Assembly (NCBI RefSeq): GCF_035917675.1
Contig: NZ_CP109104.1
Span: 5,828,001 to 5,892,000 of the forward strand
Direction: 5' to 3'
Source of the DNA: Streptomyces sp. NBC_01775
Lineage (GTDB): Bacteria; Actinomycetota; Actinomycetes; Streptomycetales; Streptomycetaceae
DNA length: 64,000 nucleotides
The notes beneath the pieces were generated by a model. The model saw only the letters and a program-made list of their open reading frames with translations. It had not been told where the DNA came from and searched no databases. Positions 8,425 through 18,716 of this stretch are shown here, one piece after another; position 1 is the stretch's first letter; every line of letters begins with the position of its first letter. The translations under genes and the position numbers were made by a program.

Positions 8425-9411
8425 TCAGTGGGGGCGGCTGCGGAGACGGCGCAGCATGCGGGGGTCCTCGAAGCCGACCTCGCGTGCCGCCGTCTCCGTG
8501 GTCGCGCCGTGGCCGATCAGGTGCTCGGCCCGCTCCAGGCGAAGGGTCTGCTGGTAGCGCAGCGGGGTGAGTCCGCTGGTGGCGCGGGCGAAGAGCCGGG
8601 TGAGGGTGCGGGGGCTGACGCCCGCGCCGGCGGCGAGGTGGGCGAGGGGAAGCGGCTCGGCGAAGCGGCTGTCGATGAGGTCCTGCACCCGGTGGACGGT
8701 GTCGTCCAGGTGCGAGCGGTGCCGCAGCATGGCGCTGGCCTGGGGCTCGTCGCCGTTGCGGCGGGCGTAGACGACCATGCTGCGCGCCACGCGCGCTGCC
8801 AGTGCCGGGCCGTGCCGTATGGCGAGCAGGTGCAGCGCGAGGTCGATGCCGCTGGCGATGCCTGCCGAGGTGACGACCCGGTCGTCGGTGGTGAACAGCA
8901 CGTCCCGTACGACGTGGGCACGCGGGTGGCGGGCCGCCAGCTCGTCCTGGAGCTCGTGGTGGGTGGTGAAGTGGCGCCCGTCCAGCAGTCCGGCCCGGCC
9001 CAGGGCCGCCGCGCCGGAGCACACGCTCGCGACGGTGCCGCCCGCGGCGTGGTGCGCGCGCAGCCGCTGTTCGGTCCGCGCGCCCAGCCGGGGGCCGCCT
9101 CCGCGCACCGCCGGGGTCCGCCAGCCGGGCACGATCACCAGGTCCTCGGCGGACGGATCCGGCCAGCGGGTGAGGGCCGTCAGGGGAAGGCCCTGGGCGC
9201 TGAGGATCTGCTCCTGCTCGGCGAAGTAGCTGAGCCGGTAGGGCCGCCCGAAACCCGCCGCGGTGCTGAAGACCTGTGCCGGTCCTGCCAGGTCGAGCAG
9301 GTGGATGCCGGGCAGCAGGACGAAGACGACGTGGTTCACGGGCGGCGCGTCGCCGCCGTTCACGGGTGCGTCGTCGTTCGCGGGCGTGCGGGTCTCGGGT
9401 ACGTGGTTCAC
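8425..9411 (-). CDS. GlxA family transcriptional regulator (DJ-1/PfpI-AraC)
   Basis: Protein of 328 residues. An N-terminal class-I glutamine amidotransferase-like/DJ-1 domain (about 25-190) contains VFVLLPGIHLLDLAGP and the nucleophile-elbow-like VCSGAAALG. It is followed by an AraC-type double HTH (about 225-325: LAHLAAGAGVSPRTLTRLF, LRLERAEHLI). These proteins are usually regulators whose amidotransferase domain senses a ligand rather than catalyses. The second AraC helix-turn-helix ends soon after AAREVGFEDPRMLRR, slightly short but complete. The GTG start overlaps the upstream isochorismatase-like gene by 4 bases (GTGA), indicating an operon. Confidence 0.9.
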   Translation of the reverse strand: MNHVPETRTPANDDAPVNGGDAPPVNHVVFVLLPGIHLLDLAGPAQVFSTAAGFGRPYRLSYFAEQEQILSAQGLPLTALTRWPDPSAEDLVIVPGWRTPAVRGGGPRLGARTEQRLRAHHAAGGTVASVCSGAAALGRAGLLDGRHFTTHHELQDELAARHPRAHVVRDVLFTTDDRVVTSAGIASGIDLALHLLAIRHGPALAARVARSMVVYARRNGDEPQASAMLRHRSHLDDTVHRVQDLIDSRFAEPLPLAHLAAGAGVSPRTLTRLFARATSGLTPLRYQQTLRLERAEHLIGHGATTETAAREVGFEDPRMLRRLRSRPH

Positions 9412-10046
9412 GGGTGCGCGGCCACCGCGGCTTCCGTGCCGGACCCCGGTCCGGCCTCCGCTGCCCTCTCGGCCTCCGCCGCCCCTTCCGCCTCGGCCTC
9501 CGCTTCCGCCTCCAGCTCCAGCTCCAGCTCCGCCACGCTCCCGATCCGCGCGAACCGGCCGCGCAGGACCGCCTCCGTGCGCTCGATGACCGCCTCGGGC
9601 GGCAGCCCCGTGGCGCGGTCGGTCGTCGTCGCGTCGGTGACGAAGACGATGCCGTAGCCCAGGTCACTGCCGACGCGGGCCGTCGTCTCGACGCACTGTT
9701 CGGTGCGGATGCCGCACAGCACCAGCTCGCGTACGCCCGCCCTGGTCAGCAGCTGCTGGAGGTGGGTGGTGGTGAAGGCGTTGTGGGCCGTCTTGCGGAG
9801 TACGGGCTCGCCGGGTACCGGCTGTTCGAGCTCTTCCAGCAGCCGGACGTGCCCCTGCTCGGGGTCGAACGCGTTCCCACTGCCCGGCTCGGTGTGCAGC
9901 ACCCAGATGACCTGGTCACCGCGTGAGCGGGCGAGGCGTACGAGGCGGCTGACGGGCTCGGCTATGCGCTGGTTGGCCATGTCCTCCCAGTGCGGGCGGG
10001 CACGGAAGGACTCTTGGACGTCGATCACAAGCAGGGCTCGGTTCAT
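9408..10046 (-). CDS. isochorismatase-like cysteine hydrolase
   Basis: Protein of 212 residues of the isochorismatase/nicotinamidase superfamily. The catalytic triad is visible as Asp9 (LLVIDVQESF), Lys85 (LRKTAHNAF) and Cys118 (RTEQCVETTA). The last 35-40 residues are a Glu/Ala-rich tail (repeated EAEA) not needed for the fold. The substrate is unknown; the motif context does not match true nicotinamidases, and a separate nicotinamidase gene lies at 53.9 kb. It is the first gene of a two-gene operon with the GlxA-type regulator and divergent from the hexosaminidase gene. Confidence 0.88.
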   Translation of the reverse strand: MNRALLVIDVQESFRARPHWEDMANQRIAEPVSRLVRLARSRGDQVIWVLHTEPGSGNAFDPEQGHVRLLEELEQPVPGEPVLRKTAHNAFTTTHLQQLLTRAGVRELVLCGIRTEQCVETTARVGSDLGYGIVFVTDATTTDRATGLPPEAVIERTEAVLRGRFARIGSVAELELELEAEAEAEAEGAAEAERAAEAGPGSGTEAAVAAHP

Positions 10047-10164
10047 GTGCCCAGTCTGTACGGGTCGGCGCCCGTGCGGCAGACACGGACCGGGCCACCA
10101 CCGGAACGATCTGGTCACAGGCAAGGCAGGGGAAGACGACCTGCCGTGCCCGCACGGCGACGGG

Positions 10165-10180
10165 ATTGGTCGAGACCTAT
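10165..10180. promoter_or_regulatory. possible DasR-responsive element (dre)
   Basis: ATTGGTCGAGACCTAT matches the dre consensus as I recall it (ACTGGTCTAGACCAGT) at 12 of 16 positions and keeps the TGGTCnAGACC core. It lies about 137 bp upstream of the hexosaminidase start, in the divergent promoter region. DasR represses chitin/GlcNAc catabolic genes in streptomycetes, so the location makes biological sense. The assignment is by eye. Confidence 0.5.
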
Positions 10181-10316
10181 TGCCGTGGACGGGGTGTGCT
10201 CGTAGCCTCCTGCGGAAGTTGTGCACCGCGAAACCACCGTTGTGCACCCTGCAACGCACGGCACGCTGCCCGTGCCCGTGCCCCGTGCCCGTGCCGGTTC
10301 CGGAGAGGAGCACCTG

Positions 10317-11990
10317 GTGAGCTGGTCCGGACTCGTTCCGCGCCCTTCCGACGTCCAAGAGCGCGCGGGTGCGCCGTTCGTGTGGGGGAGCGGCACCGCG
10401 CTCCTCGCCCGCCCCGGCACGCACTCCGTCGCGCGCTGGCTGCGCGGCCAGGCCGCCCTCCCTTTCCGGGAGGGCGCGGACAACGACGCCGACCCGCCCC
10501 GCCGTGAGGAGGACCGACCCCGCCGTGAGGAGGACCGACCCCGCAGCGAGGAGGACCGACCCCGCAACACCGTCGAGCTGCGCCTCGACCGCGAACTGCC
10601 CGCCGGGTCCTACCGGCTGGACGTCACCGCCGAGCGCGCCCTGATCGAGGGCGGCGACGAGGCCGGGGTCTTCTGGGGCGTCCAGACCCTGCGCCAGGCA
10701 CTCCCGCCCGGCGCGCTGCGCCGCGCGTCCACCGCGGCGGAATGGCACCTGGCCCCGGCCCGCGTCCAGGACGCGCCCCGCTTCGTCTGGCGCGGCCTCA
10801 TGCTGGATGTGGCGCGGCACTTCATGCCGAAGGACGGGGTGCTGAGCGTCCTCGACCTGCTCGCCGCGCACAAGCTGAACGTCCTCCACCTCCACCTGAC
10901 CGACGACCAGGGCTGGCGCGTCCAGATCCGCCGCTATCCGGCGCTGACCGAGGTCGGCGGCTGGCGGCCCCGCACGCGGGTGGGGCACCGCGCCTCCCCG
11001 CTGTGGGACGAGCGCCCGCACGGCGGCCACTACACCCAAGGCGACCTGCGCGAGATCGTCGCGTACGCCGCCGAGCGGCACATCACCGTCGTCCCCGAGA
11101 TCGAGCTGCCCGGCCACTCGCAGGCCGCCATCGCCGCCTACCCCGAACTGGGCAACACCGACGTGGTCGACACCGCCGCGCTCGGCGTGTGGACCGACTG
11201 GGGTGTCAGCCCCCATCTGCTGGCCCCCACCGACGACACCCTCCGCTTCTACGAACACGTCCTGGAAGAGGTCCTCGACCTCTTCCCCTCCCCCTTCATC
11301 CACATCGGCGGCGACGAGACCCCCAAGGAGCAGTGGCGCGCCTCCGCCGTCGCGCAGGCGCGCCTCGCACAGGAGGGGCTCGTCGACGAGGACGCCCTCC
11401 AGGCGTGGATGGTGCGGCACTTCGACCGCTGGCTCGCCGCGCGCGGACGCCGCCTCACCGGCTGGGACGAGATCCTGGAGGGCGGCACCCTGGCCGACGG
11501 GCTCACACCCGGCGCCGTCGTCTCCTCCTGGCGGGGCTACGAGGGCGGCATCACGGCCGCCAAGTCCGGCCACGACGTGGTGATGTGCCCCGAGCACCAG
11601 GTGTACCTCGACCGCCGCCAGGCGCCGGGCGAGAGCGAGCCGATGCCGCTTGGGTACGTCGCGACCCTGCGCGACGTCCACGGCTTCGAGCCGGTGCCGC
11701 CGGAGCTGGCCGGCACGGAGCACGCCCGGCATGTGCTCGGCATCCAGGCCAACATGTGGACGGAGTGCGCGGAGAGCGCGCAGCGCGTCGACTACCAGGT
11801 CTTTCCGCGGCTCGCCGCGCTGTCCGAGGTGGCGTGGTCGGCGGAGGCGGGGGAGTACGCGGACTTCGAGCGGCGTATGGACGAGGCCCACTACGCCCGC
11901 CTCGACGCCCTCGGCGTCAATTATCGCCCCCCGGCCGGTCCCCACCCCTGGCACCGCCGCCCGGGCATCCCCGGCAGGCCCCTGGAATGA
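10317..11990 (+). CDS. beta-N-acetylhexosaminidase, GH20
   Basis: Enzyme of 557 residues that removes terminal beta-GlcNAc/GalNAc from chito-oligosaccharides or glycans. It starts at GTG behind GGAGAGGAG. An N-terminal GH20b-type domain (to about 150) precedes the GH20 barrel (FVWRGLMLDVARHFMP, HLHLTDDQGWRVQI, PEIELPGHSQAA). The catalytic Asp-Glu pair is in HIGGDETPKEQW (Asp333, Glu334). No signal peptide is seen, so it is probably intracellular, acting on imported oligosaccharides. An Arg/Glu-rich triplicated segment (PRREEDR units) sits in the N-terminal domain. A GlcNAc-type PTS permease lies elsewhere in this window. Confidence 0.92.
   Translation: MSWSGLVPRPSDVQERAGAPFVWGSGTALLARPGTHSVARWLRGQAALPFREGADNDADPPRREEDRPRREEDRPRSEEDRPRNTVELRLDRELPAGSYRLDVTAERALIEGGDEAGVFWGVQTLRQALPPGALRRASTAAEWHLAPARVQDAPRFVWRGLMLDVARHFMPKDGVLSVLDLLAAHKLNVLHLHLTDDQGWRVQIRRYPALTEVGGWRPRTRVGHRASPLWDERPHGGHYTQGDLREIVAYAAERHITVVPEIELPGHSQAAIAAYPELGNTDVVDTAALGVWTDWGVSPHLLAPTDDTLRFYEHVLEEVLDLFPSPFIHIGGDETPKEQWRASAVAQARLAQEGLVDEDALQAWMVRHFDRWLAARGRRLTGWDEILEGGTLADGLTPGAVVSSWRGYEGGITAAKSGHDVVMCPEHQVYLDRRQAPGESEPMPLGYVATLRDVHGFEPVPPELAGTEHARHVLGIQANMWTECAESAQRVDYQVFPRLAALSEVAWSAEAGEYADFERRMDEAHYARLDALGVNYRPPAGPHPWHRRPGIPGRPLE
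10497..10559 (+). repeat. in-frame 21-bp repeat, three copies, in the hexosaminidase gene
   Basis: Three copies of a 21-bp unit (CCCCGCCGTGAGGAGGACCG plus A) are joined head to tail. The first two are identical and the third differs by a few bases. They encode a seven-residue PRREEDR unit repeated in a surface region of the N-terminal domain, so copy number can change without breaking the frame. Confidence 0.85.
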
Positions 11991-12233
11991 GCCCTTGCCC
12001 CTCCGCTGGATTGAGCCCCTGCCCCGCCGCCCGTCTCTCGCGGAGGCCGGTGGAGATCCCGGTCCCGGGCGCGTGGACCGAGCCCCTGTAATACAGCGGG
12101 CAAATGCGACGGGAGCCGCCCTCGTGTCGTGCCTCGGCCGAGATGTGCCAGAGTTGCCTAGTCCGGGCTGTGAGCACGTACCGTACGGCAGTGCAGCCGG
12201 GAGCCCGGGGATGTCGGGGAAGGGGCAGCTAGG

Positions 12234-13169
12234 TTGAGCACGCACGTACGGCACGCACCACACGGCGGCCAGGCCGCGCAGGCTGTGCCGTCTGTCATGC
12301 TGCCGACCACCCTCGACGAGGCCGTGTCGGCGCTCGCCACCGTGCCCGCCGCCGTTCCCGTGGCGGGCGGCACCGACCTGATGGCCGACGTCAACTCCGG
12401 CCAGCTCCGCCCCGCCGCGCTCGTCGGCCTCGGGCGGATCAGCGAGATCCGCGGCTGGTCGTACCAGGACGGGCACGGCGTGCTGGGCGCCGGACTGACC
12501 CACGCCCGCATGGGCCGCCCCGACTTCGCCGCGCTCATCCCCGCGCTGGCCGCCGCGGCCCGCGCCGCCGGGCCCCCGCAGATCCGGAACGCCGGGACCC
12601 TCGGCGGCAACATCGTCAGCGCCTCGCCCACCGGTGACACGCTGCCCGTGCTGGCCGCGCTGGAGGCCACGCTCTCCATCGCCGGGCCCGAGGGAGCGCG
12701 CCGCGAGCTGCCGGTGAGCCATCTGCTCGCGGGCATGGACATGCTTCAGCCCAGCGAGGTCGTCGGCTATGTGCGGGTGCCGCTGCTGCACGCGCCGCAG
12801 ACCTTCCTCAAGGCCACGAGCAGGACGGGGCCCAGCCGCGCGCTCGCCTCGGTCGCCGTCGTGCTCGACCCGATGCGGCGCGGGGTGCGCTGCGCGGTCG
12901 GCGCCGTCGCGCCGATGCCGCTGCGCCCGCTGGAGGCCGAGCGCTGGATCGCCTCGCTCATCGACTGGGACGGCGAACGGGGGCTCGCCCCCGAGGCGCT
13001 GACTGCTTTCGGGGAGTATGTCGCGATGGCGTGCATCCCCGACCCGGTGCCGGAGGAGGGGCCCGACGGTACCCCTGGGCCCGTATCCGAGCTTCCGCCC
13101 GCGGCGCTGCACTTGCGGCGTACCGTGGCGACACTGGCCCGCCGTGGACTCGGGAGGGCTCTCGCATGA
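12234..13169 (+). CDS. xanthine dehydrogenase family FAD-binding subunit
   Basis: Protein of 311 residues, the medium subunit of a molybdenum hydroxylase (CoxM/XdhB-like). It carries the FAD-binding PCMH fold (PVAGGTDLMADVNSG, near 45) and the second FAD motif RNAGTLGGNIVSASPTGDTLP (near 120), plus the CO-dehydrogenase flavoprotein C-terminal domain. It starts at TTG behind AGGGGCAG; an inner ATG at 12297 is a weaker alternative. The stop overlaps the ATG of the 2Fe-2S subunit, so the subunits are coupled. It should pass electrons from the 2Fe-2S clusters to FAD and an acceptor. Confidence 0.9.
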   Translation: MSTHVRHAPHGGQAAQAVPSVMLPTTLDEAVSALATVPAAVPVAGGTDLMADVNSGQLRPAALVGLGRISEIRGWSYQDGHGVLGAGLTHARMGRPDFAALIPALAAAARAAGPPQIRNAGTLGGNIVSASPTGDTLPVLAALEATLSIAGPEGARRELPVSHLLAGMDMLQPSEVVGYVRVPLLHAPQTFLKATSRTGPSRALASVAVVLDPMRRGVRCAVGAVAPMPLRPLEAERWIASLIDWDGERGLAPEALTAFGEYVAMACIPDPVPEEGPDGTPGPVSELPPAALHLRRTVATLARRGLGRALA

Positions 13170-16100
13170 GCGGCACACCACACGACAACGGGAACGGGAA
13201 CCGGAACGGGGGCGCGGACCCGCACTCAGGCGCGGGACCGCACGCGAACGTGAACGCGCACACGGACGAGAACGGATACCCGTACCCGGACGGGGACGGC
13301 TACCCGGGCGGGGGTGCGTACCCCGCCGGGGACGGTTACCAAAGCGGGGACGCGTACCAGGGCCAGGACGGCTACCCGGAGGCTCAGGGCGGCTACCCGG
13401 AGGCTTACGGGACGAACGCCGACCCTTATGCCCGGTATGACTCCTACGCGGAACAGGTCCCGTACGGGCAGCATGTGCCCAGGAGTTGGGGCGGCGGCGA
13501 GTACGACGCGGACGCGACCGGGTTCGTGCAGCTGCCCGCGGGCGGTTTCCCCGAGAGCGGCGTACCGCTCGCCGCGCCCGGCACGGGCCAGGGCGGCTAC
13601 ACCCCGCCGTCCATCGACCCCTCCGAACCGGGCGCGGGCAGTGCGCCCTTGACCCCGGCCGCGAGCACGGACCCCTCGGACACCGGCCAGTGGGTGATGC
13701 CTTTCGCGCCGGAGACGGCGCAGCCCGGTGCGGAGTTCGCCCAGAACTACGGCCAGAACCAGGGCCAGAACCAGGGCCAGAACCAGGGCTACGGCCAGGG
13801 CTATGGCGGGGACCCCGGTGCGGGCCGGCATGAACCGGAGGGCGAAGCGGAGCCCGGCCAGGGCGCCGGTCCCGGTCCCGGTCCGGATCCTGCCGCCGGT
13901 CTCGGCTCGGGCTCTTCGGCCGCCTCCGTGCTCGGGCAGGGCGCCGCGGCGGCGCTCGCCGGATCGCACGAGGCCCGCACCCAGCGCCGCCCGCTCGGTG
14001 CGGGCCCCGGCACGGGGGCGGGCGCCGCGCCAGGGACCGAGGGCACGGGCACGGGAACGGGCACGCCTGGTTCGGCCGCCGCGATCGGCGGGACCGACGG
14101 CGGACAGAGGCAAGGACAGGGACAGGGCGCCGCGCAGGGCCCGGGGGGCACGCTCGGCGCCGGCCGGCCGCTCGCCGAGGAGCCCGCCGTTGACGGGGGT
14201 TACACCCCGCCCTCGTCCGCCGCGCCGGTGCCCGCGCCAGGGCACCTGCCCGCCGCCAGCGAGTCGCCCGGACCCTGGAGCCCGACCCCGCCGCCCCCCG
14301 CGCCGCACTGGGGCGAGGCATCGGCGCACGCACCGCATCCGCACCCGGGGCCGGAAAGCCCCGACGCCTTCACCGGTCCTGGCCCGTTGCCGCCGCAACA
14401 GCCGGGCATGGTCTGGCCGTTCACGCCTTCGGAAGGCGGCCCCGCCGTCGGCTCCCTCGGCGCGCTCGACTCCACCGCACACCCTCAGACCCCCGGCGGG
14501 CCTGGCGTACCCGGAGCCTCCGGCGGGAACGCGCCCGCCCCGGCCGAGCTGCCGGAACAGCGCGACCGTTCGGCCGCCCCGCCCGAGCAGGACGTCCAGG
14601 GACCCTCGGGTGTCCAAGGCCCCCCGGAGGGACCTGGCTTCCCGGAGGGACCGGGATCCCCGGATGTCCAGCACCCCTCGGATGTCCAGCACTCCTCGGA
14701 CGCCGAGGCCACGGACGAGAAGCTCGGTGCGGCCCCCCGGCCCGCCGAGTCGGCGCCCGCCCCTTCGGCGCCCACCGGGCTGCCGCCCGAGCGCGAGCAG
14801 CCGACTGCGGAGCCGCAGCCGACGGCGCAGGCCGAGCCGGGTGCGGACGGCCCCGTGGGTGGGCGCGTGGACGGCCCGGTGGGCGGGCCCAGGCCGGGCC
14901 TGATTCCCACGACGGCCTCCACTCCCGGCAGCGCGCAGCCTGTCGCGCAGCCGCCCTCCCCGGAGCCCGAGCCCGCGCCCGAGCCCGCGCCTGTCTCCGT
15001 CCCGGCAGCGGACGCCACCGGATCGGACGCCACCGGGTCGGACGCCGCCGAGGGGGCAGCCGGGTCCGGGACGGACGTCGGCCCCCAGGCCCCTGACGGG
15101 CCCGCAGAGGCGGACGCGGCCACGGACACCGAGGCGGACGCCGACGCGCAGGAGGAGGGGAAACCCGACGTCCCCGATGCGAACGCCGTTGCCGACGCGG
15201 AGGCGGACGCCGACACCGGAGAGGCCGACGCAGAAGAGGCCGGCTCCCACGAGGCGGACTCCCAAGAGGAGGACGCGTCGGCCGGTGACGAACACCCCCA
15301 GGTCTCCTACGTCCTGCACGTCAACGGGGTCGACCGGCCGGTCACCGGCGCGTGGATCGGCGAGTCGCTGCTGTATGTGCTGCGGGAGCGGCTCGGGCTG
15401 GCGGGCGCCAAGGACGGGTGCGCGCAGGGCGAGTGCGGCGCGTGCTCGGTGCAGGTGGACGGCCGGCTCGTGGCCGCCTGCCTGGTGCCCGCGGCCACCG
15501 CGGCGGGCAGCGAGGTACGCACCGTCGAGGGCCTCGCGACGGACGGCGTGCCCTCCGACGTTCAGTGCGCGCTGGCCGAAAGCGGCTCCGTGCAGTGCGG
15601 GTTCTGCGTGCCCGGTCTGGCCATGACCGTGCACGATCTGCTGGAGGGCAACCACGCCCCCAGCGACCTGGAGACCCGCAAGGCGATCAGCGGCAACCTG
15701 TGCCGCTGCTCCGGATACCGGGGCGTGCTCGACGCCGTCCGCACCGTCGTCTCCGAACGCGCCGCGAAGGCCGAGCGGGAGACGGCCGAGGCCGAGGCGC
15801 AAGCCCAGACCCAGGCCCAGGGGGCGGCGGCCGGCACCCCCGGCGCACCCGGCCCGCATCCGGAACACGCCAACGGCGTGTTCGGCAACGGCAACGCCGA
15901 CAACGGCGGCAACGCCAACGGTGGTTACGAGACCGGCGCGTACCCCCGCGAGGCGTACCCGAACGGCGAGTACGGCGAGGCCCCGCACGAGGGCGGCCAG
16001 TACGGCACCGAGCAGTACGGCCAGGGCCAGTACGGCAACGAGCAGTACGGCGCCGACCAGTACGGCCAGGACCAGTACGGCCAGGACCAGTACGGCGGCA

Positions 16101-16207
16101 ACGAGCAGTACCGCGGCAACGACCAGTACGGCGGTGCCGAGTACGGCAACGGCACCTACGGGGCGGACATCCCCCAGCAGACACGCCACCCGGACAGGGG
16201 CGCGTGA
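13166..16207 (+). CDS. xanthine dehydrogenase family 2Fe-2S subunit with very long low-complexity flanks
   Basis: Protein of 1013 residues; the family is normally about 160-200. The ferredoxin-like core is only about residues 713-865. All eight cluster ligands are present: Cys752, Cys757, Cys760 and Cys772 (CAQGECGAC ... AAC), then CGFC and the LCRCSGY pair. Before it lie about 710 disordered residues in zones: a Tyr/Gly/Asp/Asn-rich stretch, a GQN repeat, Pro/Gly/Ala-rich sequence, and a strongly acidic Ala/Asp/Glu zone just before the core. After it come about 150 residues ending in many QYG units (EQYG, DQYGQ). The frame is continuous, coupled upstream by an ATGA overlap, and 146 bases ahead of the molybdopterin subunit. 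The core should function; the flanks have no known role. A start nearer the core cannot be excluded, but the frame is open throughout and the coupling favours the long form. Confidence 0.85.
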   Translation: MSGTPHDNGNGNRNGGADPHSGAGPHANVNAHTDENGYPYPDGDGYPGGGAYPAGDGYQSGDAYQGQDGYPEAQGGYPEAYGTNADPYARYDSYAEQVPYGQHVPRSWGGGEYDADATGFVQLPAGGFPESGVPLAAPGTGQGGYTPPSIDPSEPGAGSAPLTPAASTDPSDTGQWVMPFAPETAQPGAEFAQNYGQNQGQNQGQNQGYGQGYGGDPGAGRHEPEGEAEPGQGAGPGPGPDPAAGLGSGSSAASVLGQGAAAALAGSHEARTQRRPLGAGPGTGAGAAPGTEGTGTGTGTPGSAAAIGGTDGGQRQGQGQGAAQGPGGTLGAGRPLAEEPAVDGGYTPPSSAAPVPAPGHLPAASESPGPWSPTPPPPAPHWGEASAHAPHPHPGPESPDAFTGPGPLPPQQPGMVWPFTPSEGGPAVGSLGALDSTAHPQTPGGPGVPGASGGNAPAPAELPEQRDRSAAPPEQDVQGPSGVQGPPEGPGFPEGPGSPDVQHPSDVQHSSDAEATDEKLGAAPRPAESAPAPSAPTGLPPEREQPTAEPQPTAQAEPGADGPVGGRVDGPVGGPRPGLIPTTASTPGSAQPVAQPPSPEPEPAPEPAPVSVPAADATGSDATGSDAAEGAAGSGTDVGPQAPDGPAEADAATDTEADADAQEEGKPDVPDANAVADAEADADTGEADAEEAGSHEADSQEEDASAGDEHPQVSYVLHVNGVDRPVTGAWIGESLLYVLRERLGLAGAKDGCAQGECGACSVQVDGRLVAACLVPAATAAGSEVRTVEGLATDGVPSDVQCALAESGSVQCGFCVPGLAMTVHDLLEGNHAPSDLETRKAISGNLCRCSGYRGVLDAVRTVVSERAAKAERETAEAEAQAQTQAQGAAAGTPGAPGPHPEHANGVFGNGNADNGGNANGGYETGAYPREAYPNGEYGEAPHEGGQYGTEQYGQGQYGNEQYGADQYGQDQYGQDQYGGNEQYRGNDQYGGAEYGNGTYGADIPQQTRHPDRGA

Positions 16208-16352
16208 TGCCGGCCGGACCCCCTCACCCCGCACCCACCCGGGCAACCGGCGTCAGCCCGAGCCCCACCCGCGTGAACCAGCCCCGCCCGCGTGACCGCG
16301 CCACCGCGCGCGTCCGAAAGGGCGGCGGGCACCAGCACAGAAAGGCGGCGGT

Positions 16353-18716
16353 ATGACGGAGACGGCTGACGGCCACCCCGGCGCCGGCCCCGGCACGGGC
16401 TCCGGCGCCGCCTCGGCGACCCCCGCCGGAGGCGCCCCGCTGCCCCCGGGTTCGCGGAGCGCGCCCGAGCCGCACGGGCTCGGAGCCTCTGTCATGCCCA
16501 CCGACGTCTACGCCAAGGCGCAGGGCACCTTCCCCTACGCGGCCGACCTGTGGGCCGAGGGGCTGTTGTGGGCCGCGGTGCACCGCTCCTCGTACCCGCG
16601 CGCCCGGATCGTGTCCATCGACACCGAACAGGCCGCCGCCATGCCGGGCGTGCACGCCGTCGTGACGCACGAGGACGTGCCCGGGGACTCGTCGCACGGC
16701 CGGAAGGTCGCCGACCAGCCCGCCTTCGCGCGCGATGAGGTGCGCTACTTCGGCGAGCCGATCGCGGCCGTCGCCGCCGACCATCCGGACACCGCGCGGC
16801 TTGCCGCCGCCGCCATCGCCGTCGAGTACGAGGTGCTGGAGCCGGTCAGCGACCCGGAGAAGTCCTTCGAGTCCGAGCCGCTGCACCCCGACGGCAACCT
16901 GCTGCGCCACATCCCGCTGCGCTACGGCGACCCGGACGCCACCGGCGAGGTCGTCGTCGAGGGCCTGTACCGGGTCGGCCGCCAGGACCCCGCGCCGATC
17001 GGCGCCGAGGCCGCGCTCGCCGTACCCCGCCCGGACGGGGGCGTGGAGATCTACACCGCCTCCACCGACCCGCACACCGACCGCGACCTGGCCGCGGCCT
17101 GCTTCGGGCTGCCGCCCGAGCAGGTCAAGATCGTGGTGACCGGGGTGCCAGGGGCCATGGGCGACCGCGAGGACGCCGCGCTCCAGGTCCCGTTGGGGCT
17201 GCTCGCGATGCGCACCGGCTGCCCGGTCAAGATCGCGCTGACCCGCGAGGAGTCCTTCCTCGGCCACGCCCACCGCCACCCCACCCTGCTGCGCTACCGC
17301 CACCACGCGGACGGCGAGGGCACGCTGGTGAAGGTCGAGGCACAGATCCTGCTGGACGGCGGCGCCTACGCCGACACCTCCTACGACGCGCTGGCCGCCG
17401 CCGTCTCGTTCGCCGCCGGGCCGTACGTCGTGCCGCACGCGGTGATCGACGGCTGGGTGGTGCGCACCAACAACCCGCCCTCGGGCCATGTGCGCGGCGA
17501 GGGCGCGATGCAGGTGTGCGCCGCGTACGAGGGCCAGATGGACAAGCTCGCCGAGCGGCTCGGCCTCGACCCGGCCGAGGTGCGGATGCGCAACGTGCTG
17601 GCGACCGGCGACCTGCTGCCGACGGGCCAGACCGTCACCTGCCCGGCGCCGGTTGCCGAACTCCTCAGCGCCGTACGCGAGGCGCCGCTGCCCGCGCTGC
17701 CCAAGGACGCGCCCGAGTCCGACTGGCTGCTGCCCGGCGGACCGGAGGGCGCGGGCGACCCGGCCGCGGTGCGGCGCGGGGTCGGCTACGCGCTCGGCAT
17801 GGTGCACATGCTCGGTGCCGAGGGCACCGACGAGGTGTCCACGGCCACCGTCAAGGTCAGCGGGCCCGTCGCCACGGTGATGTGCGCGGCGGTCGAGGCC
17901 GGCCAGGGCTTCGACACGCTTGCCCGGCAGATCGTGCAGGAGACCCTCGGTATCGACGAGGTGCACATCGCCTCCGTCGACACCGACCAGCCGCCCTCCG
18001 GCGCGAGCGGGCGCGGCCGGCACACCTGGGTGTCGGGCGGCGCGGTCGAGCGCGCGGCGAAGATGGTGCGCACCCAGCTGCTCCAGCCGCTGGCGGCGAA
18101 GTTCGGGATGTCCACGGAGCTGCTGTCCATCGCGGACGGCAAGATCACCTCGTACGACGGGGTGCTGTCCACCACCGTCGTGGAGGCGCTGGAGGGCAAG
18201 GAGCTGTGGGCGACGGCGCAGTGCCGCCCGCATCCGACCGAGCCGCTGGACGAGTCGGGCCAGGGCGACGCCTTCGTCGGCCTCGCCTTCGCCGCCGTAC
18301 GCGCGGTGGTGGACGTCGACATCGAGCTGGGCTCCGTCCGCGTGGTCGAGGTCGCCCTCGCGCAGGACGTGGGCCGCGTCCTCAACCCCCGGCAGCTGCG
18401 GGCCCGCCTGGAGGCGGGCGTCACCCAGGGCATCGGCACGGCGCTCACGGAGCACCTGCGGGTCGCCAAGGGCGTGGTGCGCCACCCGGACCTGACGGCC
18501 TACGCGCTGCCGACCGCGCTGGACACCCCGGACATCCGCATCGTGGAGCTGATCGAAGAGCGCGACGTGGTGGCCCCGTTCGGCGCCAAGGCCGCCTCGT
18601 CGGCCCCGGTCGTCACCACCCCGTCGGCAGTGGCGGCAGCGGTGAGAGCCGCCACCGGCCGCCCCGTCAACCGTCTCCCCATCCGCCCCCAGGCGGCGGT
18701 GGGCGCGGCGCAATAG
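16353..18716 (+). CDS. xanthine dehydrogenase family molybdopterin-binding subunit, divergent active site
   Basis: Large subunit of 787 residues, with the Ald_Xan_dh_C domain near the start (about 50-170) and the two molybdopterin-binding domains after it. The family scaffold is clear (RPDGGVEIYTASTDPHTDRDL, TREESFLGHAHRHP, EAGQGFDTLARQIV). Hallmark active-site residues differ. The usual GGAFGGRED-type loop reads GVPGAMGDRED (264-274). The RGFG substrate loop reads RGEG (381-384). The GAKGVGEA motif with the catalytic Glu reads GAKAASSA (744-751), putting Ser at 750. The N-terminal 40 residues are Gly/Ala/Pro-rich. It could be a non-canonical enzyme or an inactive paralogue. Third gene of the operon. 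Confidence 0.85.
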   Translation: MTETADGHPGAGPGTGSGAASATPAGGAPLPPGSRSAPEPHGLGASVMPTDVYAKAQGTFPYAADLWAEGLLWAAVHRSSYPRARIVSIDTEQAAAMPGVHAVVTHEDVPGDSSHGRKVADQPAFARDEVRYFGEPIAAVAADHPDTARLAAAAIAVEYEVLEPVSDPEKSFESEPLHPDGNLLRHIPLRYGDPDATGEVVVEGLYRVGRQDPAPIGAEAALAVPRPDGGVEIYTASTDPHTDRDLAAACFGLPPEQVKIVVTGVPGAMGDREDAALQVPLGLLAMRTGCPVKIALTREESFLGHAHRHPTLLRYRHHADGEGTLVKVEAQILLDGGAYADTSYDALAAAVSFAAGPYVVPHAVIDGWVVRTNNPPSGHVRGEGAMQVCAAYEGQMDKLAERLGLDPAEVRMRNVLATGDLLPTGQTVTCPAPVAELLSAVREAPLPALPKDAPESDWLLPGGPEGAGDPAAVRRGVGYALGMVHMLGAEGTDEVSTATVKVSGPVATVMCAAVEAGQGFDTLARQIVQETLGIDEVHIASVDTDQPPSGASGRGRHTWVSGGAVERAAKMVRTQLLQPLAAKFGMSTELLSIADGKITSYDGVLSTTVVEALEGKELWATAQCRPHPTEPLDESGQGDAFVGLAFAAVRAVVDVDIELGSVRVVEVALAQDVGRVLNPRQLRARLEAGVTQGIGTALTEHLRVAKGVVRHPDLTAYALPTALDTPDIRIVELIEERDVVAPFGAKAASSAPVVTTPSAVAAAVRAATGRPVNRLPIRPQAAVGAAQ

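What the first reader, a model, noticed from the sequence alone, without database searches (positions are those of the whole stretch)
13166..16207. Molybdenum-hydroxylase 2Fe-2S subunit embedded in about 860 residues of low-complexity, prion-like sequence
Seen: an intact ferredoxin/2Fe-2S core with all eight cysteines spans only about residues 713-865 of a 1013-codon open frame. About 710 disordered residues precede it (Tyr/Gly/Asp, GQN repeats, Pro/Gly, then strongly acidic) and about 150 with many QYG units follow it. Known: this subunit is normally 160-200 residues. Inference: composition with Tyr/Gln/Gly repeats resembles sequences that drive phase separation or multivalent assembly, so the complex might be organised into a condensate or scaffold. 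The acidic zone adjoining the core could control cluster access.
Basis: partly seen in the sequence, partly recalled or inferred. Interest (0 to 1): 0.8.

Follow-up and report, generated by a model that had tools for sequence, protein, structure and literature searches.

The report
Tailed subunit of a degenerate molybdenum enzyme
In Streptomyces and its relatives the iron-sulfur subunit of a molybdenum-enzyme complex carries a long floppy tail studded with short conserved motifs, while its catalytic partner has lost the key catalytic residue, which hints that the complex now does something other than ordinary catalysis.

Summary
Window 13166-16207 encodes 1013 aa: an intact eight-cysteine 2Fe-2S core (residues 711-870) between 710 and 143 low-complexity residues. 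It is not a one-off. In named Streptomyces/Actinacidiphila loci the N flank is 146-853 aa, and its start codon overlaps the FAD-subunit stop (70 of 75 readable loci). Streptacidiphilus and Kitasatospora homologues carry the long tail after the core instead. The N flank is translated (dN/dS 0.28-0.59 in 15 pairs), fast-evolving, and disordered by AlphaFold2. It holds conserved islands: an acidic motif with Thr at 181 of 181 sites found (188 flanks), GYxPP, TG[QE][WF], a GQGAAAALAGSHEAR..RRPLG block in the window's clade; near the C end there is [IV]P[HQ]Q. The QYG array was seen only in the window's own protein. Unexpectedly, the Mo subunit of the operon lacks the catalytic Glu of the xanthine-oxidase family (kept in 0 of 76 named orthologues and 0 of 7 Streptacidiphilus loci) and the GGAFG loop; two own-genome paralogues and two relatives in the order keep both. 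Best reading: a multi-motif tether on a conserved but catalytically degenerate complex. A condensate is neither excluded nor specifically supported. Partners and activity are unknown.

The parts
13166..16207 (+). 2Fe-2S subunit with long flanks, 1013 aa
13487..13537 (+). Flank motif 1, residues 108-124 WGGGEYDADATGFVQLP; Thr118 at the centre, hydrophobic residue at +3
   Evidence: island in A2; Thr in 181 of 181 sites found among 188 distinct (partly near-identical) flanks, shuffled flanks give a site in 3.5%
13565..13609 (+). Flank motif 2, residues 134-148 PLAAPGTGQGGYTPP
   Evidence: APG..GYxPP in 49 of 69 named flanks, shuffles 0.1%
13685..13705 (+). Flank motif 3, residues 174-180 GQWVMPF (TGQWxxP type)
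   Evidence: TG[QEHS][WFYL] in 64 of 69 named flanks, shuffles 5.4%; only site of the strict DNA pattern in the own genome
13741..13789 (+). GQN-type tandem repeat
13934..14005 (+). Flank motif 4, residues 257-280 GQGAAAALAGSHEARTQRRPLGAG
   Evidence: island in A2; strict form in 8 of 69 named loci
15059..15295 (+). Acidic stretch before the core (about residues 632-710)
15296..15775 (+). 2Fe-2S core, residues 711-870, all eight cysteines
15776..16204 (+). C-terminal flank, 143 aa; predicted helix to residue 888, then no structure
15997..16151 (+). QYG-type tandem repeat
16169..16180 (+). C-terminal motif IPQQ (residues 1002-1005; [IV]PHQ in most orthologues)
   Evidence: [ILV]P[HQ]Q in 67 of 69 named C flanks, shuffles 0.6%; 114 of 120 long database homologues
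12234..13169 (+). FAD subunit frame; motifs AGGTDL and GGNIVSASP present
16353..18716 (+). Mo subunit (best model PucD, below its cut-off), active site degenerate
17148..17162 (+). Mo subunit residues 266-270 PGAMG where the four controls have GGAFG
18600..18602 (+). Mo subunit Ser750, aligned with Glu869 of D. gigas aldehyde oxidoreductase
10221..11990 (+). GH20 beta-N-acetylhexosaminidase frame, conserved neighbour
   Evidence: in 69 of 80 named loci, within 1.5 kb upstream of the FAD gene in 67 of the 68 loci that hold both; directly upstream in 7 of 7 Streptacidiphilus loci

Best explanation
The protein is the 2Fe-2S subunit of a Streptomycetaceae relative of the PucCDE/xanthine-dehydrogenase complexes, turned into a tether. 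SHOWN (sequence level): the N flank is translated, genus-wide and hypervariable, with conserved short motifs; the core cysteines are kept; in the same operon the Mo subunit has lost the catalytic Glu and the GGAFG loop yet stays conserved (median 81% identity to the window's over 76 named loci). INFERRED: the disordered flank is a multi-motif tether that docks partner proteins through short linear motifs (the Thr-centred acidic motif, TG[QE][W/F] units, C-terminal [IV]PHQ). The complex keeps its 2Fe-2S and FAD electron chain but no longer performs ordinary Mo hydroxylation, so the tether may deliver electrons to, or place the complex beside, another enzyme. The Thr motif would be a regulated docking site (for example phospho-Thr read by an FHA-domain protein).
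For: Start codon at -4 of the FAD stop in 70 of 75 readable named loci. N-flank dN/dS 0.28-0.59 in 15 of 15 pairs. Motif counts far above shuffles. Thr in 181 of 181 motif-1 sites with that position left free; the genome has 7 FHA matches, none inside the window. The motif stretch has no significant relative elsewhere in the own genome (best other E 0.2; strict pattern one match). AlphaFold2 gives the window's N flank no secondary structure and mostly pLDDT under 50; L138 similar. Catalytic Glu absent in 76 of 76 named and 7 of 7 Streptacidiphilus Mo subunits; present in own-genome paralogues L184 and L185 and in order relatives L179 and L183. The matching E1265Q change made mouse AOX1 inactive (PMC2671166, passages). 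FAD motifs kept.
Against: No partner is known. The C tails of Streptacidiphilus lack motifs 1 and 2 (0 of 14), and 69 of 120 hits of the Streptacidiphilus query end in a PEDD type instead, so no single motif is universal; 25 of those 69 also hold [ILV]P[HQ]Q inside the tail. In L152 and L157 that motif is internal, not terminal. Relative L179 has an N tail but keeps the catalytic Glu, so tail and degeneration are not strictly coupled. Other Moco-loop residues are partly kept: the GQG Gln in 60 of 76 named loci, though in 0 of 7 Streptacidiphilus loci; control L185 has Pro there too. The C-terminal motif has pLDDT about 54 in the L138 monomer and no contact analysis was made. Loss of Moco or of activity is inferred from sequence only.
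Confidence: 0.45

Rival explanations
1. Condensate driver: Tyr/Gln/Gly-rich, acidic tails give multivalent weak contacts that concentrate the complex; the motifs are stickers.
For: Window C flank has 20% Q+N and 11% aromatic residues; other long C flanks (L085-L088, L152, L157, 11 database proteins) have 8-13% aromatics; Streptacidiphilus tails have 7-11% aromatics and up to 12 TGx[WFYL] units; the side and sequence of the tail change while its presence stays.
Against: N flanks have a median of 4.9% aromatic and 2.1% basic residues; the median Streptomyces C flank is 37 aa without aromatics; the QYG array is the window's alone in the sets examined; island-like conservation suits specific docking better.
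Confidence: 0.2
2. Neutral expansion: GC-rich repeat slippage lengthens a tolerated linker and the sequence has little function.
For: N-flank length varies from 146 to 853 aa and tandem repeats are frequent; C-flank dN/dS is near 1 in several pairs; third-position GC is lower in the N flank than in the core.
Against: Conserved islands, Thr in 181 of 181 sites, TGQW-type motif and [IV]PHQ kept across the genus; N-flank dN/dS below 0.6 in 15 of 15 pairs, though only well-aligned blocks were counted.
Confidence: 0.15
3. Gate or entropic bristle: the acidic, disordered flank covers the 2Fe-2S face and controls which electron acceptor reaches the clusters in an otherwise working enzyme.
For: An acidic stretch next to the core is general (orthologue median 24% D/E in the last 80 residues); in Streptacidiphilus the 60 residues after the core hold 7-30% D/E.
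Against: Would need no conserved distal motifs; the partner active site looks degenerate.
Confidence: 0.1
4. Annotation artefact: translation starts near residue 700 and the flank is not made.
For: Databases hold versions of 184-287 aa. Many are marked partial, but of 18 looked at several unmarked ones begin just before or inside the core; the DNA above those was not checked.
Against: Overlapping start in 70 of 75 named loci, dN/dS and motifs of the flank.
Confidence: 0.03

Closest known systems
2Fe-2S subunit of three-subunit Mo hydroxylases (PucE/XdhC/CutS/CoxS/nicotinate dehydrogenase type)
   Same: Fer2 plus Fer2_2 core, eight cysteines, operon with FAD and Mo subunits
   Different: 710 + 143 flanking residues; below the cut-off of each of the 11 NCBIfam models it matches; degenerate Mo partner
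PucCDE / XdhABC purine hydroxylases (Streptomyces xdhABC is reviewed in PMC6627660, passages)
   Same: Sequence relationship; PucD is the best model for the Mo subunit (666 bits, cut-off 784)
   Different: Catalytic Glu replaced by A/S/T and GGAFG by PGA[TMLS][GA]; the own genome has separate paralogues L184 and L185 that keep both
RNase E C-terminal disordered scaffold with microdomains (PMC4435900, abstract)
   Same: Works like: disorder, tandem repeats and short conserved microdomains in variable filler on an enzyme subunit
   Different: No homology; there partners are known, here none
GarA and other FHA regulators of actinobacterial metabolism (PMC12321487, abstract)
   Same: Possible reader of the Thr-centred motif
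   Different: No FHA match in the window; phosphorylation of the motif is not shown

Membership tests
Mo-hydroxylase 2Fe-2S subunit | Fer2 and Fer2_2 domains with eight cysteines | tested here: met
   Fer2 scores 20.7, just under its cut-off of 21
Mo-hydroxylase 2Fe-2S subunit | Operon with FAD and Mo subunits | tested here: met
   FAD in 74 and Mo in 78 of 80 named loci (some contigs end nearby)
PucE / XdhC equivalogs | Score above curated cut-off | tested here: not met
   140.1 vs 217 (XdhC), 131.3 vs 254.3 (PucE)
Catalytically competent xanthine-oxidase-family enzyme | Catalytic Glu in the Mo subunit | tested here: not met
   Ser750 aligned with Glu869 of 1sij; kept in 0 of 76 named and 0 of 7 Streptacidiphilus loci
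Catalytically competent xanthine-oxidase-family enzyme | Moco bound, hydroxylase activity | not testable with these tools
   needs purified protein
Disordered multi-motif scaffold (RNase E-like in mode) | Disordered region with conserved short motifs | tested here: met
   disorder judged from AlphaFold2 and composition, no dedicated predictor
Disordered multi-motif scaffold (RNase E-like in mode) | Known motif-partner pairs | not testable with these tools
   no partner found
Prion-like condensate driver | Prion-like composition conserved across orthologues | tested here: not met
   C flank median 37 aa with aromatic fraction 0, QYG array in the window only; composition counts, no phase-separation predictor run
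FHA-binding phospho-site | Invariant Thr, hydrophobic +3 | tested here: inconclusive
   Thr 181 of 181; +3 is hydrophobic by the search rule; phosphorylation untested. FHA is described as phospho-Thr specific with +3 preferences in PMC4037201 (passages); the wider +3 I/L/V rule is recalled

The most novel reading that the evidence does not exclude
Streptomycetaceae have retired a whole molybdenum hydroxylase: a conserved pseudo-hydroxylase complex that keeps its 2Fe-2S and FAD wiring, has lost the catalytic base and a Moco loop, and has evolved a phospho-Thr-regulated disordered tether on the iron-sulfur subunit, so that it acts as an electron-delivering or positioning scaffold, possibly linked to amino-sugar metabolism through the neighbouring GH20 enzyme.
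Probability: 0.25. Interest if true: 0.85.

Novelty: new variant of a known kind. Interest (0 to 1): 0.6.

Why it matters
Mo hydroxylases are well-studied enzymes with compact iron-sulfur subunits and a highly conserved catalytic glutamate (family-wide conservation is recalled; PMC2671166 passages call it highly conserved). A genus-wide complex that breaks both rules is a clean system for asking how disordered tails and loss of catalysis go together. The motifs are short, conserved and easily deleted, and the tail sits on opposite sides of the core in sister lineages, so tether, condensate and neutral-drift models can be told apart in laboratory strains. It also warns that database names such as 'CO dehydrogenase small subunit' or 'aldehyde oxidoreductase' for this protein may mislead.

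Tried and rejected
Searching for the motif stretch elsewhere in the own genome gave nothing significant. The idea that TGQW is a generic motif was rejected for this genome only: one match to the strict DNA pattern. Docking of the C-terminal motif on the core was not seen in the AlphaFold2 monomer; the shallow alignments (31 and 28 rows) also gave modest core confidence, so this is weak evidence. A universal [IV]PHQ was rejected: 66 of 119 hits of the Streptacidiphilus query hold [ILV]P[HQ]Q. 'QYG tail typical of the clade', which I first assumed, was rejected on recount: window only. Literature: no described case among the listings; only the passages and abstracts named in this report were read, and subscription journals are mostly missing from the library. 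One passage looked up in PMC9739823 did not bear on the gene. Kitasatospora Mo subunits were not examined. No disorder or phase-separation predictor was available.

Rows dropped: searches use 69 of the 80 named loci (start at -4 and complete C end); left out are 5 with the N side cut, 5 with the start elsewhere or not found (L103, L110, L152, L157, L162) and L146 (C end cut). Two of these, L152 and L157, have C flanks of 286 and 315 aa, so the median C flank of 37 aa leaves them out. Of 14 Streptacidiphilus loci, the 2 without the C-terminal motif are cut by the locus end. In one search a strict pattern found 134 of 188 sites, each with Thr; the looser rule, with the central residue free, found 181 of 188; of the other 7, 3 show the motif with Thr by eye, 1 has a variant, and 3 have an annotated protein that starts late or lacks it. 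Two database entries labelled Streptomyces (P0286, P0349) are of the C-tail type, and one N-tail locus is labelled Streptosporangium (L094); labels were taken as given.
Full report
Observation. The frame 13166-16207 (+) encodes 1013 aa. Its start codon overlaps the stop of the FAD-subunit frame. The 2Fe-2S core fills residues 711-870; Fer2_2 scores 82 bits, Fer2 20.7 (cut-off 21). The closest solved relatives are small subunits of nicotinate dehydrogenase, aldehyde oxidase, 4-hydroxybenzoyl-CoA reductase and CO dehydrogenase. N and C flanks are 710 and 143 aa. Third-position GC is 0.85-0.88 in the N flank and 0.95 in core and C flank, and 0.64 in the same frame above the ATG.

Distribution. 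A search with the core region gave 2158 proteins, of which the best 120 are listed: 557-999 aa, and every organism name given is Streptomyces (only proteins of 0.55-1.75 times the query length are candidates). With the 161-aa core, 199 of 199 genomes of the genus gave a match at E <= 1e-20; by my count of the rows 189 of 199 have one better than 1e-75, and 9 of the other 10 are drafts of 460 or more contigs. Of 80 named loci (the best 80 of 496), mostly Streptomyces with three Actinacidiphila, 75 have an N side not cut by the locus, and 70 of these 75 have the start codon at -4 of the FAD stop. In the 69 complete ones the N flank has a median of 381 aa (5-95%: 225-736; extremes 146 and 853) and the C flank a median of 37 aa. 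Of 119 listed hits of a Streptacidiphilus query with a readable core, mostly Streptacidiphilus and Kitasatospora where named, 1 has an N flank over 100 aa (P0279, with an FAD domain); the C tail median is 217 aa. In the order, L179 (core 55% identical) has a long N flank, with start codons 19-61 bases after the FAD stop, while L183 is a plain 157-aa subunit. In a tree of 47 chosen cores the C-tail group is one side of a branch (91/86) and the Streptomyces/Actinacidiphila N-tail rows stand together (89/88); neither reaches the tool's mark of 95/80, and long branches make the outgroup order unsure.

Flank anatomy. Shuffled-flank controls (69 flanks): D.[DE][AQG]T[AMG][FH][VIL] 48 of 69 (shuffles 0), APG..GYxPP 49 (0.1%), TG[QEHS][WFYL] 64 (5.4%), W.[IMFVL]P 68 (10.7%), [DE][ST]GE[FYV] 53 (0.6%), TLPGGAPAPW 34 (0), SHEAR..RRPLG 8 (0), and in the C flank [ILV]P[HQ]Q 67 (0.6%). 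In the window-led alignment A2 (28 sequences) conserved islands lie at residues 105-124, 134-148, 174-180 and 257-280, between long gapped stretches. In A1 (31 other sequences) W15, D25, T29, P47, L48 and the C-terminal R314, P316, H317, Q318 are invariant. With the central residue left free, the motif-1 rule found a site in 181 of 188 distinct flanks and the residue was Thr in 181 of 181; shuffles gave a site in 3.5%. The flanks come from related species and are not independent. Streptacidiphilus C tails carry TGx[WFYL] in 9 of 14 loci (shuffles 8.9%) and [ILV]P[HQ]Q in 12 of 14 (shuffles 6.1%), the other two being cut. Composition: the window's C flank is high in Q+N (0.20) and aromatics (0.11); its QYG array is not seen in the other sequences counted, but long C flanks with 8-13% aromatics occur in L085-L088, L152, L157 and 11 of 120 database proteins.

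Constraint and structure. N-flank dN/dS is 0.28-0.59 (15 pairs), core 0.04-0.26 (15 pairs), C flank 0.23-0.99 in 13 of 14 pairs and 2.16 in one of 15 codons (only gap-free blocks of at least 6 codons and 40% identity were counted, which favours conserved stretches). AlphaFold2 gives the window's protein no secondary structure before residue 715 and pLDDT under 50 for 819 of 1013 residues; a helix runs from 850 to 888. For the compact orthologue L138 the first 120 residues are about 40-51. Alignments were shallow, so the core itself is only partly confident.

The partner subunit. The Mo subunit aligns to D. gigas aldehyde oxidoreductase 1sij over 49-783; its Ser750 stands at Glu869, and also at a Glu of 1rm6. 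Glu869 lies at the Mo site in that enzyme (PMC3877041 and PMC10223205, one passage each). Among 76 named full-length Mo subunits the column is A 70, S 5, T 1; in 7 Streptacidiphilus loci A 7; L182 (window's clade) S. L179, L183 and the own-genome paralogues L184 (42% identical) and L185 (26%) have E. The GGAFG loop: first Gly is P in 75 of 76 and 7 of 7, Phe is T, M, L or S in 76 of 76 and T in 7 of 7; all four controls read GGAFG. The Gln of GQG is kept in 60 of 76 and 0 of 7; controls Q, Q, Q, P. Named Mo subunits are 79-94% identical to the window's (median 81%), so the gene is not decaying. In mouse AOX1 the E1265Q change abolishes activity (PMC2671166, passages). FAD motifs are present in the window, and in 7 of 7 Streptacidiphilus loci with small changes. 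A GH20 gene is found in 69 of 80 named loci, within 1.5 kb upstream of the FAD gene in 67 of the 68 that hold both, and directly upstream in 7 of 7 Streptacidiphilus loci; none was found in the about 2-6 kb held upstream of L179, L183 and L184.

Reading. Translation, predicted disorder and motif conservation of the flank rest on sequence. That the motifs dock partners, that motif 1 is phosphorylated, and that the complex no longer hydroxylates are inferences. RNase E is the closest model for the mode of action (PMC4435900, abstract). Five further matches to the core exist in the own genome at 41-54% identity.

Noticed in passing
16353-18716 (Ser750 at 18600-18602; residues 266-270 at 17148-17162): Mo subunit lacks the catalytic Glu and the GGAFG loop of its family in the 76 named and 7 Streptacidiphilus loci tested.
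   Followed up: partly
10221-11990: GH20 hexosaminidase frame is a conserved neighbour in Streptomyces and Streptacidiphilus; functional link unknown.
   Followed up: partly
L179 (reverse strand): A 5.1-Mb genome of another family in the order has a long N flank on this subunit but keeps the catalytic Glu, a possible intermediate.
   Followed up: partly
database proteins P0276-P0361: Many Kitasatospora C tails carry TPAHG repeats and a PEDD-type end (69 of 120 hits of the Streptacidiphilus query).
   Followed up: partly
P0279: Kitasatospora cheerisanensis entry carries FAD and 2Fe-2S domains in one protein; could be a frameshift.
   Followed up: no
L152 and L157: Two Streptomyces outside the window's clade have long N flanks and C flanks of 286 and 315 aa with DSYGRDAL-type repeats; [IV]PHQ is internal there.
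   Followed up: partly
13226-16246 (-) and 9408-14333 (-): Very long antisense open frames over the gene, taken as a by-product of high G+C; not tested.
   Followed up: no
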